Shown piece after piece: positions 1-3,232 of a stretch of DNA of 5,303 nucleotides (the first letter of the stretch is position 1; every line of letters begins with the position of its first letter). Position numbers and translations under genes: made by a program. Origin of the DNA: Pseudomonadota bacterium (GTDB lineage Bacteria > Pseudomonadota > Gammaproteobacteria > Burkholderiales > Rhodocyclaceae); contig JAUPVD010000088.1 in the NCBI GenBank assembly GCA_030917225.1, positions 1-5,303 of the forward strand, in the 5' to 3' direction. Under the pieces are notes generated by a model. It was not told the DNA's origin, ran no database searches, and saw only the letters and a list, made by a program, of their open reading frames with translations.

Positions 1-323
1 CACAGGGCGGAATCGGTTACGACGAGCGCCTGGCGCCGAATCCGGCTTGCCCGGCGTGCTTCGGCCGTGGAGTTGGCCGTGTGCTGGTTGCCGATACACG
101 TAATGTCAGCAAGCAGGCGGCATCGCTTTACGCCGGGATCAAGCAGACCAAGGACGGGCTTGAAGTCAAGTTGCACTCGAAGGTTGATGTGATGGACAAG
201 TTGTTCCGTCACTTCGGGCTGTATGAGGCCGACAACAAGCAGAAGAGCGCGCTAGACGGCTTGCCACGCGAACTGCTTCAGGCGATGGTGCAACGCTTGA
301 AAGCGCTGAATGGTCAGTCTTGA
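1..323 (+). CDS. Terminase small subunit, C-terminal part (5' end outside window)
   Basis: This is the DNA-recognition subunit of the phage packaging terminase; it binds the packaging site and hands DNA to the large subunit. The frame is open from the left edge (first full codon at 3) to TGA 321-323, so about 106 residues are visible. A GTG at 81 could be called a start, but the frame upstream reads as good coding sequence (YDERLAPNPACPACFGRGVG), so the gene begins left of the window. That stretch holds a CxxCxGxG knuckle, followed by DTR and by LYAGIKQTKDGLEVKLHSK. From memory this arrangement, including the Tyr/Phe-Ala-Gly and LxKHFGLYE-like tail (here LFRHFGLYEAD), is typical of small terminases of proteobacterial prophages, a different family from P22 gp3. 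The end overlaps the large terminase start by 14 bases, which suggests translational coupling. Function is inferred from remembered family sequences and from position. Confidence 0.85.
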   Translation, partial: QGGIGYDERLAPNPACPACFGRGVGRVLVADTRNVSKQAASLYAGIKQTKDGLEVKLHSKVDVMDKLFRHFGLYEADNKQKSALDGLPRELLQAMVQRLKALNGQS

Positions 324-2724
324 TAAACTGGACGACATGATTTCCGGCCTGCCGCCGGAAGCGCGGGCGGCATTGTTGGACGACGCAATGCGGCAGCTTG
401 CGCGCAACAAGATCGCCGATTACCGGCCGTATCCAAAACAGCGTAAGTTTCACCTGCTTGGCGCGACGATGCGCGAACGACTGCTGCGCGCAGGAAACCA
501 GAACGGCAAGTCGTTCTGTGTTGGGTCCGAGGCGTCGTATCACCTTACCGGGCTGTATCCAGACTGGTGGGACGGCCGCCGTTGGGCGCGTCCGACCGTC
601 GTATGGGCATCCGGCGAGACGGCAGAGGCTACGCGCGACAATCCTCAGCGCGTATTGCTTGGACTGGCCGGCGAAAAGGGAACCGGAGCCATTCCGGCAG
701 ACTGCCTGGGTGGAGATTATGGCATGGCATCGGGCACAGCAGACCTGTTCGACTACATAAAGGTTAGGCACCATACGAATGGCGTTTTCGATGGCTGGTC
801 GTTCCTGCGTTTCAAGTATTACGCACAGGGGAGAAAGAAATGGCAGGGGCCGCCAGTTGATTTCGTTTGGTTCGACGAGGAACCGCCAGAGGAAATCTAC
901 GACGAAGGATTGGCACGGACGATCGCAACAGGCGGAATGGCCGCCATGTCATTCACGCCACTGCAGGGGATGTCGACCGTCGTGCTGCGCTTCCTTGGGA
1001 AAGAGAAAACCGCCGACCGTGCCGACGTCAACATGACGATAGAGGACGCCGAACACATATCACCGGAGGAGCGGGTTCGGATCATCGCCAGCTTCCCTGC
1101 GCACGAACGCGAGGCGCGCGCCAAGGGCATTCCGACACTAGGCAGCGGACGCATCTTTCCGGTCGAAGAAGACTCAATCAAGGTGGCGGCGTTTCCTATC
1201 CCGGAGCATTGGGCGCAGATCAACGGAATCGATTTCGGCTGGGATCACCCGGCCGCTGCTGCGCGCCTTGCGTGGGACCGTGACGCTGATTGCCTGTACC
1301 TGATCAACGCGCACCGAGCCCGCGAACAGACGCCTATTCTCTTTGCACCATCAGTCAAGGCGTGGGGAGACTGGATCCCGGTTTCCTGGCCGCATGATGG
1401 ATTGCAGCATGACAAGGGTAGCGGCGAGCAACTGGCCGAGCAGTATCGCGAAGCTGGCCTCAACATGCTACCCGAGCGCGCGACATGGGAAGACGGTAGC
1501 AACGGCGTCGAGGCCGGAGTGCTGGAAATGCTCGACCGGATGCAGACGGGGAGATTCAAGGTGTTCGCTCACCTGGATGAGTTCTTTGAAGAATTCCGAC
1601 TGTATCACCGCAAGGACGGGAAGATCGTCAAGGAGATGGACGACATCATCAGCGCATGTTTGCATCAAGACACAAGGGTTATTACTAGATTTGGCGCGCA
1701 AAGAATAGTTGATCTGGTTGGAAGCAACGGAGAGGTTCTTAGTGCCGGCGGGGAGTGGATGCCATATAACAACTGCCGCAAGACGAGAGAGCAGGCAGAG
1801 CTTGTGATGGTTACGTTTGAAGATGGGTACGAGCTGCTTTGCACCCCTGACCACAAAATTTTGTCTGAATCAGGAGAGTGGGTCGCCGCAATAGATTCTG
1901 CTGGCGTGGTATGTCACAATGCCGTATCGCGTAGCAAAGGAATAAAATGGACGAAATCATTTACGGCGGAAAGCGATTTACTCGCTTTGGAAGATATTTC
2001 CGTAGTTCAAAAGAGTTTCTTCATAGGGCGATTTGGGAAGACTCTAACGGAAAAATTCCAGATGGCTACCATGTTCATCACAAAGATGGTGACAGGGATA
2101 ACAACTCCATTGAAAACCTTTGCTGCGTTCCAGGAGAAGAGCATCTGTCGCTCCACAACAAGGGACACCAAAGACGACCAGACGCTGCGCTTGCGGCCTT
2201 GGTTGAGTGGCGAAAAACAGATGCAGGTAAATCAGCCCAATACGAGGCAGGAAAGAGAAACGAGCACTTCCTTCGCCAAAAGGTTGAGTTCGTTTGTGAT
2301 TGCTGTGGAAAAAAGTTTATGTCTCAACCAAAAGGGAGTAATCGGTTTTGCTCAAACGCATGTAGATCAAAGCAGCGCCGCAAAGATGGAGCGGACCTTG
2401 TTGCTTTTGTTTGCGGAGTGTGCGGATCGGAATATATGTCAAACCGATTCAGGCCAAGCAAAACATGCTCAATATCTTGTTCAAAAAAGCTATGGACTTC
2501 AACTCCCGAAGGCAAAGAGCACATCGCGCGTCTTGCAAGTGAAAAGCGCCGGAAGAAGTGATGTTTATTGCATGGAGGTTCCCGTTTACCAAGCCTTCGC
2601 TGTAGAGAATGGGGTTGTAGTGCATAACTGTCGCTATGCGCTGATGATGAAGCGCTTCGCCAGGGTTCCGCCAAGGGCTGATCGCCGCGCACATCGCAAG
2701 GAAAGAGATTGGCGAACGGCTTAA
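310..2724 (+). CDS. Terminase large subunit (P22 gp2-like), interrupted by an in-frame intein
   Basis: This is the packaging motor ATPase and the nuclease that cuts concatemeric phage DNA, acting at the portal vertex of the prohead. The precursor is 804 residues: N-extein 1-449, intein 450-773, C-extein 774-804. The spliced product would be 480 residues, close to P22 gp2 (about 500). Visible motifs are Walker A AGNQNGKS (61-68), Walker B VDFVWFDEEPP (about 183-193, Asp189/Glu190), a coupling motif SFTPLQGMS (214-222), nuclease motif I GIDFGWDHP (307-315, Asp308), PHDG (361-364) and the final acidic motif EMDDIISA (442-449). The match to my memory of P22 gp2 is long and collinear (QGRKKWQGPP, FDEEPPEEIY, NMTIEDAEH, REARAKGIPTLGSGRIF, FFEEFRLYHR). 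The start at ATG 310 fits the P22 N-terminus (SLDKLDDM against MELDAILDN). Its Shine-Dalgarno is weak, so coupling to the upstream stop is likely; ATG 337 is the alternative start. The C-extein after RYALMMKRFAR is Arg-rich and short, and the next gene's frame is also open beneath it. Confidence 0.95.
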   Translation: MVSLDKLDDMISGLPPEARAALLDDAMRQLARNKIADYRPYPKQRKFHLLGATMRERLLRAGNQNGKSFCVGSEASYHLTGLYPDWWDGRRWARPTVVWASGETAEATRDNPQRVLLGLAGEKGTGAIPADCLGGDYGMASGTADLFDYIKVRHHTNGVFDGWSFLRFKYYAQGRKKWQGPPVDFVWFDEEPPEEIYDEGLARTIATGGMAAMSFTPLQGMSTVVLRFLGKEKTADRADVNMTIEDAEHISPEERVRIIASFPAHEREARAKGIPTLGSGRIFPVEEDSIKVAAFPIPEHWAQINGIDFGWDHPAAAARLAWDRDADCLYLINAHRAREQTPILFAPSVKAWGDWIPVSWPHDGLQHDKGSGEQLAEQYREAGLNMLPERATWEDGSNGVEAGVLEMLDRMQTGRFKVFAHLDEFFEEFRLYHRKDGKIVKEMDDIISACLHQDTRVITRFGAQRIVDLVGSNGEVLSAGGEWMPYNNCRKTREQAELVMVTFEDGYELLCTPDHKILSESGEWVAAIDSAGVVCHNAVSRSKGIKWTKSFTAESDLLALEDISVVQKSFFIGRFGKTLTEKFQMATMFITKMVTGITTPLKTFAAFQEKSICRSTTRDTKDDQTLRLRPWLSGEKQMQVNQPNTRQERETSTSFAKRLSSFVIAVEKSLCLNQKGVIGFAQTHVDQSSAAKMERTLLLLFAECADRNICQTDSGQAKHAQYLVQKSYGLQLPKAKSTSRVLQVKSAGRSDVYCMEVPVYQAFAVENGVVVHNCRYALMMKRFARVPPRADRRAHRKERDWRTA
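1657..1896 (+). other. Intein N-terminal splicing domain (blocks A and B)
   Basis: Residues 1-80 of the intein form the first part of the Hint (Hedgehog/intein) fold. Cys1 is the N-S acyl-shift nucleophile. The Thr63-Pro-Asp-His66 motif is the block B TxxH that activates the N-terminal scissile bond. A Trp two residues after the block B His, as in class 3 (WCT) inteins, is absent (Ile68 instead). The tail ESGEWVAAID is a typical end of this domain. The following residues, SAGVVCHNAVSRSKGIKW, lie before the internal HNH start and probably form a linker. Confidence 0.85.
1936..1941 (+). promoter_or_regulatory. Shine-Dalgarno of the internal HNH gene
   Basis: AAAGGA lies 5 bases upstream of ATG 1947, a good ribosome-binding spacing. 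It lies inside the intein coding sequence, where it is read as Lys-Gly. It is stronger than anything before the large terminase ATG at 310. This supports separate translation of the endonuclease rather than fusion to the intein. The nearest upstream stop in the HNH frame is TAG 1932-1934. Confidence 0.75.
1947..2561 (+). CDS. HNH homing endonuclease, nested out of frame inside the intein
   Basis: This 204-residue protein is predicted to be a site-specific DNA endonuclease that cuts intein-free terminase alleles and so drives copying of the intein. The HNH_3-type core is at about 25-70: LHRAIW, IPDGYHVHHKDGDRDNNS and IENLCCVPGEEHLSLH, with His44-His45, Asn53, Asn57, His66 and His70 as likely metal and catalytic residues. 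Two zinc-finger-like modules follow with identical spacing, CxxC-x14-CxxxC: Cys117/120/135/139 and Cys156/159/174/178. They probably bind the target DNA. The tail TPEGKEHIARLASEKRRKK is basic and resembles the small DNA-binding repeats of phage homing enzymes. The gene has its own AAAGGA site and ATG. Its TGA stop (2559-2561) falls on the Ser-Asp codons that open intein block F, so it exactly fills the slot where inteins carry an in-frame endonuclease. It is in the -1 frame relative to the terminase-intein. Low GC (25/60 at 2041-2100) suggests transfer. The fold and family are clear; activity and target are inferred. Confidence 0.93.
   Translation: MDEIIYGGKRFTRFGRYFRSSKEFLHRAIWEDSNGKIPDGYHVHHKDGDRDNNSIENLCCVPGEEHLSLHNKGHQRRPDAALAALVEWRKTDAGKSAQYEAGKRNEHFLRQKVEFVCDCCGKKFMSQPKGSNRFCSNACRSKQRRKDGADLVAFVCGVCGSEYMSNRFRPSKTCSISCSKKLWTSTPEGKEHIARLASEKRRKK
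2557..2628 (+). other. Intein C-terminal splicing domain (blocks F and G)
   Basis: This segment encodes SDVYCMEVPVYQ followed by AFAVENGVVVHN, the final beta strands of the intein fold. It ends in His323-Asn324, where Asn cyclisation releases the intein, and the next codon is the Cys +1 nucleophile. Block F position 4 is Cys (VYC) instead of the commoner Asp. In class 3 inteins such a Cys is a branch nucleophile, but here Cys1 is present and the class 3 Trp is missing, so ordinary class 1 chemistry is expected. Confidence 0.9.
2698..2702 (+). promoter_or_regulatory. Candidate Shine-Dalgarno for the unknown gene, before an ATT
   Basis: AAGGA at 2698-2702 lies 5 bases before ATT 2708-2710, which is in the frame of the following gene. 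No ATG, GTG or TTG occurs in that frame between the stop at 2648-2650 and TTG 2765. Neither TTG 2765 nor ATG 2777 has a recognisable ribosome-binding site. A rare ATT start here is possible but unproven. Confidence 0.35.
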
Positions 2725-2764: not shown

Positions 2765-3232
2765 TTGGCTGCGCGCATGAACCTGGAACACCCGATACTA
2801 TCGTCGGACGGAAGTCGCTATTTCAGTGTCGGCGGCTCCGCATCCTTCAAAACCTTCACGCACAGAGGCTATAACTGCTCGCTTGAGTGGGTTGATGGCG
2901 AGCCGGCAATGCTGATCTGGTCCGCACGCGGCGGCCTTGACGCCGGGGTGTTCGGGATATGCCTGTCTTCGGCCGCCAAGTATGCTGACCCGTCCGGAGA
3001 CATCACGCCAGCCGGCTATCTGGAAATCATCAATGCGCTGCCGGTTCTCGGGAAGCCGCTGCTTGAAATCGAAGCCAAGACGCTACGCGATTGCGTGCTG
3101 CTGTGGATGCCAGACCTGCTGCACATGCCCGCCTGTCCATCCGCTGTCCGCATTGCCGATCGGCCGGATGCGCTTTGGGAGATCACTCACAAGGACCAGA
3201 ACGGCAAGGTCTTGAGCGAGGCCAGTATATGA
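2765..3232 (+). CDS. Hypothetical phage protein between terminase and portal; start uncertain
   Basis: I do not recognise this protein. From TTG 2765 it has 155 residues (151 from ATG 2777). It contains ILSSDGSRYFSVGGSASF, a middle part with WVDGEPAMLIWSARGG, and a C-terminal part with WMPDLLHMP and ALWEITHKDQNGKVL. No signal peptide, membrane segment or catalytic motif is evident; it looks like a small soluble alpha/beta protein. The frame is open and coding-like upstream of 2765, reading ARKEIGERLKYWLAAHNSRN and then YPQLAAR. The true start may therefore lie inside the terminase 3' end, for example ATT 2708 (174 residues) with AAGGA in front. Its TGA overlaps the portal ATG (ATGA at 3229-3232), so it belongs to the packaging operon and is likely coupled to portal translation. 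P22 has no gene between gp2 and gp1, so this is an added gene. A packaging or head-assembly accessory role would be guesswork. Confidence 0.75.
   Translation: MAARMNLEHPILSSDGSRYFSVGGSASFKTFTHRGYNCSLEWVDGEPAMLIWSARGGLDAGVFGICLSSAAKYADPSGDITPAGYLEIINALPVLGKPLLEIEAKTLRDCVLLWMPDLLHMPACPSAVRIADRPDALWEITHKDQNGKVLSEASI
3218..3221 (+). promoter_or_regulatory. Shine-Dalgarno of the portal gene
   Basis: GAGG lies 7 bases upstream of ATG 3229, inside the end of the preceding gene. Together with the ATGA stop-start overlap it fixes the portal start. Confidence 0.7.

What the first reader, a model, noticed from the sequence alone, without database searches (positions are those of the whole stretch)
1657..2628. 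Intein whose homing endonuclease is encoded in a different, overlapping frame
Seen: intein blocks A, B, F and G are in the terminase frame, while a complete HNH gene (1947-2561) fills the B-to-F interval in the -1 frame. It has its own AAAGGA, ATG and TGA, and ends on the first codons of block F. Known: large inteins normally carry the endonuclease in frame, as one polypeptide with the splicing domains; free-standing endonucleases are known next to introns or between split-intein halves. Inference: here one mobile unit makes a splicing protein and a separate endonuclease from the same DNA. That would free the endonuclease from the constraint of folding inside the intein, and dose it by internal initiation rather than by splicing. 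I do not recall this as a standard intein architecture.
Basis: partly seen in the sequence, partly recalled or inferred. Interest (0 to 1): 0.93.

Follow-up and report, generated by a model that had tools for sequence, protein, structure and literature searches.

The report
Intein hiding an out-of-frame endonuclease gene
In this phage DNA-packaging gene, one stretch of DNA encodes an intein (a protein insert predicted to splice itself out) in one reading frame and, in another frame, a complete gene for a likely DNA-cutting enzyme; the same layout recurs in dozens of other phage sequences, which suggests a mobile element that would make two separate proteins from the same letters.

Summary
TerL (310-2724) contains an intein (1657-2628), and a complete HNH_3 gene (1947-2561) fills its linker in the -1 frame. 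The layout is recurrent: 56 different records show it, always in the same relative frame. In the 47 kept after filtering, the intein frame through the HNH has no stop, where synonymous randomisation expects about 4; non-nested relatives carry 7-8. The HNH frame carries the protein-level conservation. Its shadow in the intein frame is poorly conserved and predicted disordered, while the flanking halves model as a mini-intein. Of 80 TerL relatives, 77 have an empty site. In an Acinetobacter phage the unit sits in DNA otherwise 99.5% identical to an empty relative, with a short tract of flanking changes, as homing would leave. The same HNH family also lies between halves of split TerL inteins and free beside TerL. 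The closest published case found (ShiLan) has an out-of-frame HNH but no splicing domains. In the open-access library searched I found no report of an intein with this layout. Splicing, internal initiation and DNA cleavage are untested. New variant of a known kind.

The parts
310..2724 (+). terL gene, 804 codons, carrying the intein
   Evidence: Terminase_6N and 6C; phrog_2 terminase large subunit
310..1656 (+). N-extein of TerL (449 aa), ending in the RNaseH-like nuclease domain at DDIISA
   Evidence: Pfam Terminase_6C runs to the site; empty relatives continue with xRY
1657..2628 (+). intein, 324 codons, from CLHQD to VVHN
   Evidence: Intein_splicing in Pfam; Cys1, TPDH, HN then Cys; empty-site comparison
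1657..1914 (+). N-terminal splicing part of the intein (blocks A and B)
   Evidence: own profile; pLDDT about 90
1932..1934 (+). stop codon (TAG) in the HNH frame just upstream of the HNH start
1936..1941 (+). AAAGGA, predicted ribosome-binding site of the HNH gene
   Evidence: sequence; anti-SD energy -5.6 kcal/mol
1947..2561 (+). HNH_3 endonuclease gene, 204 aa, in the -1 frame relative to terL
   Evidence: Pfam HNH_3 E 2.4e-18; phrog_15471 HNH endonuclease E 5.7e-37; model pLDDT 89.4
1960..2496 (+). intein-frame reading of the HNH stretch, intein residues 102-280: stop-free filler predicted to be disordered
   Evidence: pLDDT below 50; no stops; weak conservation
2554..2628 (+). C-terminal splicing part (blocks F and G); its first bases are shared with the end of the HNH gene
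   Evidence: own profile
2629..2724 (+). C-extein of TerL, beginning CRYALMM
   Evidence: aligned with xRY of empty relatives

Best explanation
This is a likely mobile intein in a phage terminase gene whose endonuclease is encoded in the -1 reading frame of the intein's own linker, so that one stretch of DNA would make two separate proteins: a terminase precursor predicted to splice itself, and a free HNH enzyme predicted to start at its own internal ribosome-binding site. Shown here: both frames are open and occupied; the layout recurs in one and the same relative frame in 56 different records; the HNH frame carries the protein-level conservation; the intein frame through it is kept free of stops; and the insertion is precise against empty relatives. 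Inferred: ribosomes reading terL translate the HNH stretch one base on as an unstructured loop that the folded splicing halves tolerate and remove; other ribosomes start at the internal ATG and make the HNH; the HNH cuts intein-free terL alleles at the conserved DDxxSA|xRY site; and repair from the invaded copy copies splicing domains and HNH together.
For: Recurrence in one frame. 47 filtered nested HNH genes: 0 stops in the intein frame against 4.2 expected; 7.9 in 32 split/other and 7.2 in 21 intein-free relatives; Met followed by an A-starting codon, which would write TGA in the intein frame, 0 of 91 against 43 of 103 and 19 of 60. Differences between window and L003 sit at HNH codon position 3: 0.24/0.16/0.56. 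SD pairing above control ATGs, p 1.3e-4. Empty sites in 77 of 80 TerL relatives. 981-nt insertion with flanking changes confined to 163 nt upstream and 13 nt downstream in Highwayman against Acba_21. HNH and splicing halves each fold in models; intein halves match Npu DnaE (E 1.1e-5). Split relatives carry the same HNH as a separate gene.
Against: No experiment. Freedom from stops is part of the class definition, so only the contrasts count. The nested SD signal is modest: median -3.9, 20 of 47 at or below -5 (289 of 1556 controls), weaker than in split relatives (median -7.45, 21 of 32), and several nested starts have none. In 5 of 11 tested pairs, among them window-L003, -L026 and -L027, the intein-frame reading is more alike than a synonymous null (z 2.1-4.4), so some constraint beyond openness is possible, though shared ancestry can cause it. 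HNH is more alike than the N-extein for window-L003 (72 against 54%) but not for window-L027 (54 against 68%). The HNH model's best PDB match, I-HmuI, is weak (E 0.038; none at 0.001 or below). The co-conversion evidence is from a relative, not the window.
Confidence: 0.85

Rival explanations
1. The HNH is a packaging cofactor of the terminase, like the HNH proteins encoded beside terminase genes, and not a homing endonuclease; its place inside terL is for co-expression.
For: Free relatives of this HNH often lie beside terL. PMC11855218 (discussion) cites HNH endonucleases that aid terminases.
Against: 77 of 80 TerL relatives lack the insert, and Acba_21 lacks it while otherwise 99.5% identical; flanking co-conversion is a homing mark; the family matches HNH_3 and homing endonuclease models.
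Confidence: 0.06
2. The HNH is made by programmed -1 frameshifting out of the intein N part, as an IntN-HNH fusion.
For: The HNH is in the -1 frame in every nested locus. In some other nested loci the HNH frame is open far upstream (for example 183 codons in L006, 118 in L018).
Against: In window, L003, L026 and L027 a stop closes the HNH frame 3-12 bases before the ATG and no X_XXY_YYZ heptamer lies in the intein frame nearby; split relatives make the HNH as a separate gene.
Confidence: 0.03
3. The insertion is not spliced out; as proposed for ShiLan, the product keeps the insert as a tolerated loop.
For: No splicing assay here; a long filler might disturb splicing.
Against: Splicing residues Cys1, block-B Thr and His, terminal Asn are invariant in 20 aligned nested inteins; the halves model as a mini-intein; invaded copies have Cys after the intein where most empty ones have another residue.
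Confidence: 0.03
4. The HNH is a decaying relic with no product.
For: None direct for the window; a truncated HNH remnant exists in the split locus of Brochothrix phage BL3.
Against: HNH codon positions 1 and 2 are conserved and the His and Asn columns of the motif invariant in A1; full-length open HNH in all 47 filtered nested genes.
Confidence: 0.03

Closest known systems
ShiLan domain and Pacc40 insertion: hidden out-of-frame HNH in phage methylase genes (PMC11855218; abstract, introduction, results 3.1-3.4, start of 3.5, 3.6, discussion, legends and tables read)
   Same: An HNH gene inside a host gene in another frame; the host frame stays open; sporadic distribution taken there as a sign of homing
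   Different: No splicing domains there and a GTG start without a detectable RBS, by the authors' account; here intein blocks A, B, F and G flank the HNH, and the HNH has an SD-like site
Inteins with an in-frame endonuclease domain
   Same: Endonuclease between block B and block F of a splicing domain; insertion at a conserved active-site motif
   Different: There one polypeptide; here the endonuclease is in another frame. The 15 in-frame HNH inteins found have only distant HNHs
Fractured genes: split intein with a free endonuclease gene between the halves (Dassa et al. 2009, recalled; paper not held; seen only in other papers' reference lists)
   Same: Endonuclease is a separate gene inside the intein interval; relatives of this very HNH have that form
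   Different: Here host gene and intein are continuous and open, so splicing would be in cis
Mycobacteriophage TerL inteins (PMC5050341, passages read)
   Same: Inteins in TerL, shown there to splice, two with endonuclease activity
   Different: All those lie in the ATPase domain; this one lies in the nuclease domain, and its HNH is out of frame
HNH genes in phage group I introns, such as I-HmuI (recalled; I-HmuI structure was the best fold match)
   Same: A separate HNH gene inside a self-removing element
   Different: Removal there is at RNA level and the host frame need not be open through the HNH gene

Membership tests
Intein (cis-splicing, class 1 type; motif names recalled) | Cys1, block B TxxH, terminal His-Asn, Cys/Ser/Thr after it | tested here: met
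   C1, TPDH, HN then C in the window; C1, T63, H66, N324 invariant in 20 nested inteins, the penultimate His not
Intein (cis-splicing, class 1 type; motif names recalled) | Hint fold of the splicing halves | tested here: met
   Model matches Npu DnaE and Mtu RecA mini-inteins, E 1.1e-5 and 3.0e-5; a prediction
Intein (cis-splicing, class 1 type; motif names recalled) | Precise insertion in a host protein that exists without it | tested here: met
   77 of 80 relatives empty at DDxxSA|xRY
Intein (cis-splicing, class 1 type; motif names recalled) | Splicing activity | not testable with these tools
   needs expression
Large intein with in-frame endonuclease | Endonuclease in the same polypeptide as the splicing domain | tested here: not met
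   HNH is in the -1 frame
HNH homing endonuclease | HNH catalytic motif and family match | tested here: met
   HNH_3 E 2.4e-18; invariant H42, H44, H45, N53, N57, H66 in A1
HNH homing endonuclease | Sporadic distribution and co-conversion at the site | tested here: met
   for the window's TerL type; co-conversion only in the relative Highwayman
HNH homing endonuclease | Cleavage of the empty allele | not testable with these tools
   needs purified protein
ShiLan-type hidden HNH insertion | HNH out of frame with an open host frame | tested here: met
ShiLan-type hidden HNH insertion | No self-splicing domains in the host frame | tested here: not met
   Intein splicing blocks and fold present
Fractured gene with split intein (definition recalled) | Host gene and intein split into two genes with the endonuclease between | tested here: not met
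   TerL frame open from 310 to 2724 in the window; met instead by relatives

The most novel reading that the evidence does not exclude
Overprinting is a regular third way for an intein to carry its homing endonuclease: the HNH gene is written through the linker of a cis-splicing intein, and the element has moved repeatedly between this overprinted form, split inteins with the HNH between the halves, and free HNH genes beside terL. The overprinted form would be the missing step by which contiguous inteins become split ones, needing only a stop in the unconstrained filler and a start before block F.
Probability: 0.4. Interest if true: 0.9.

Novelty: new variant of a known kind. Interest (0 to 1): 0.82.

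Why it matters
It would be a mobile element whose two functions, self-removal and spread, share DNA but not protein. That shows how an endonuclease can ride in an essential gene without being folded into the intein, and it offers dozens of natural inteins that appear to tolerate about 180 residues of unstructured sequence at the endonuclease site. Because nested, split and free forms of one HNH family occur at the same kind of gene, the origin of split inteins could be tested on close relatives. It also warns annotators: in the three named phage terL genes with this layout whose records I opened (LS06-2018-MD07, Highwayman, TJE1) the HNH is not annotated.

Tried and rejected
Chance overlap: rejected by recurrence in one frame and the contrast with non-nested relatives. 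Assembly frameshift: rejected by independent records; one likely indel variant (L061) was noted. Frameshift fusion: no slippery heptamer and a stop just upstream in the four nearest loci. Filler as a functional domain: mean intein-frame identity is 0.25 in 266 nested pairs and 0.257 in 580 non-nested pairs of like HNH identity, and it is predicted disordered; the excess in 5 of 11 single pairs leaves a little room. Defence role: PADLOC hits are to homing endonuclease models and weakly to ZorE. PDB sequence search with A1 gave two short zinc-finger hits only. A DNA-level search of the intein in phages found one short match, in the terL of OP947163. TJE1 and L008 terL gave no near empty phage relative. 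Direction of change between nested, split and free is not settled: the tree is a quick one with a midpoint root.

Rows dropped before counts: of the 58 nested rows, L001 (the window again), three with HNH under 100 bits and seven near-copies were left out, giving 47. Of 42 split/other rows, three under 100 bits and seven near-copies, giving 32; L061 is counted there and in the tree, and left out, giving 31. Of 62 rows without detected intein, 40 under 100 bits and one near-copy, giving 21. Six rows with a C part only (contig edges or weak hits) were kept apart; two of them (L066, L105) also have no stop. Two N-part-only rows were under 100 bits.
Full report
What is there. The window holds the tail of a likely terminase small subunit gene (3-323; PHROG terminase small subunit E 2.1e-5, Pfam Terminase_2 below its cut-off), terL (310-2724), an ORF without family match (2765-3232) and a P22-type portal gene from 3229. 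terL is open for 804 codons and contains an intein, 1657-2628, that begins with Cys, has TPDH in block B, ends in HN and is followed by Cys. Between block B and block F, one base behind the terL frame, lies a complete 204-codon HNH_3 gene, 1947-2561, with AAAGGA at 1936-1941.

Recurrence. The HNH was sought in phage records, viral contigs and bacterial and archaeal genomes. With my own profiles for the intein N part, its C part and the HNH, the window and 184 fetched loci were classified. 58 rows (56 different records; window/L001 and L005/L095 are doubles) have N and C parts in one open frame with the HNH in the -1 frame, and none has it in the +1 frame. 15 have an HNH in frame with an intein, all far from this family (21.5-41.2 bits). 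42 have N and C parts flanking the HNH with the intein frame broken. 62 have no intein detected, six a C part only, two an N part only. Of the 47 filtered nested loci, 45 have enough N-extein to scan, and 42 of these 45 match phrog_2, terminase large subunit.

Two frames, two kinds of constraint. In the 47 nested genes the intein frame through the HNH has no stop; randomising synonymous codons at each gene's GC3 expects 4.2, shuffling each gene's own codons 1.8. The 32 split/other genes carry 7.9 and the 21 intein-free genes 7.2, close to their own expectations (7.8 and 6.9; they are also poorer in GC3, 0.39 and 0.40 against 0.52). Openness is part of the class definition, so the weight lies on these contrasts. 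The constraint reaches the HNH protein itself: Met followed by an A-starting codon would write TGA in the intein frame, and occurs in 0 of 91 nested ATG codons, against 43 of 103 and 19 of 60. The choice of frame fits the same numbers: the other frame would hold about 15.7 stops in nested genes. Differences between window and L003 pile up at HNH codon position 3 (0.24/0.16/0.56), and the intein-frame reading is no more alike among nested pairs (0.25) than among non-nested pairs (0.257) at equal HNH identity. Against this, 5 of 11 single pairs, among them window-L003, -L026 and -L027, exceed a synonymous null by more than 2 standard deviations; shared ancestry at synonymous sites can do that, but mild constraint is not excluded. 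The HNH stop overlaps the start of the C-part match in 38 of 47.

Structure. AlphaFold2 models the HNH at mean pLDDT 89.4 (pTM 0.41); its best PDB match is the HNH homing endonuclease I-HmuI, weakly (E 0.038). In the intein-frame model both ends are at about 90 and residues 102-280, wholly inside the HNH overlap, are below 50; the folded part matches Npu DnaE and Mtu RecA mini-inteins.

Expression. Nested HNH starts, assigned by a simple rule, pair better with the anti-SD than 1556 other ATGs in the same genes (median -3.9 against -2.6 kcal/mol, p 1.3e-4), 20 of 47 reaching -5; split relatives are stronger (median -7.45). In the window and its three nearest nested kin the HNH frame is closed by a stop 3-12 bases before the start, with no slippery heptamer nearby; in some other nested loci the HNH frame is open much further upstream. 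Internal initiation is favoured for the window, not shown.

Mobility. Of 80 viral loci related to this TerL, 77 have an empty site of the type DDxxSA|xRY, one (L026) has the intein and two are cut off before it; three phage records are empty too. Between window and L003 the N-extein is 54% identical, IntN 69, HNH 72, IntC 88; between window and L027 the order is reversed for the HNH (N-extein 68, HNH 54). Among Acinetobacter phages, 1 of 78 records with a match covers at least 80% of the Highwayman stretch, its own; I saw 40 of the 78 rows. Against Acba_21, Highwayman has a 981-nt insertion that turns IDA|LRYALEK into IDA[327 aa]CRYAIEK; 8 differences lie within 163 nt upstream and 7 within 13 nt downstream, and none in the rest of the 700 and 300 nt compared. 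That is the co-conversion expected from homing, and it concerns splicing domains and HNH as one block.

Relation to split inteins. In 31 of 31 split loci examined the IntC half has a candidate start of its own, 28 with anti-SD energy at or below -5 when the best of several starts is taken, and the IntN half ends within about 110 nt of the HNH start. Lactobacillus phage CL2 and Brochothrix phage BL3 are annotated as separate genes in this way. On a quick HNH tree of 100 rows the nested state needs 13 changes, at least 7 forced by well-supported branches; L061 accounts for one of the 13. L028, in the window's own supported clade, has a free HNH just downstream of an intein-free TerL. Direction is open.

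Literature. Ten searches of the open-access library found one close precedent, the ShiLan domain (PMC11855218; sections read), an out-of-frame HNH without splicing domains, and PMC12613952 (search listing only), which reports such a methylase in phage Applejack. In PMC5050341 (passages) mycobacteriophage TerL inteins all lie in the ATPase domain. PMC8228797 (passages) reports an intein at residues 35-388 of the TaPaz large terminase; the passages do not say what its linker holds in other frames. PMC10448857, PMC3229294 and PMC12403621 (passages) hold no such layout in what I saw. I found no description of an intein with an out-of-frame endonuclease; most subscription papers, and Dassa et al. 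2009, were not available.

Noticed in passing
L012, L120, L081, L064 and other loci of the split class: TerL genes split at the intein, with IntN-HNH-IntC as three successive genes; candidate natural split inteins in terminases.
   Followed up: partly
L021 (Brochothrix phage BL3) 727-2607: gp2 and gp3 look like the two halves of a TerL split by an intein, with a truncated HNH between or across them; gp3 is annotated without function.
   Followed up: partly
L019 and L025 (Vibrio phages 1.238.A and 1.245.O): TerL annotated as a hint-domain protein, then an unannotated HNH, then a hedgehog/hint domain protein carrying IntC and the TerL end; distant members of the split class.
   Followed up: partly
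L017 compared with L269: Natural pair of near-identical Acinetobacter phages with and without the nested unit, with a flanking co-conversion tract.
   Followed up: yes
one of the 45 N-exteins in alignment A4: One nested TerL also matches Hom_end_hint and Hint upstream, so it probably carries a second intein; which one was not looked up.
   Followed up: no
G000:C220:38-1000: The window's own assembly holds a second, 43% identical TerL fragment.
   Followed up: no
window 2765-3232: ORF between terL and the portal gene without a Pfam or PHROG match.
   Followed up: no
L061: Near-identical to nested L036, but the HNH frame runs on into IntC and the TerL end; one-indel variant or sequencing error.
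   Followed up: partly
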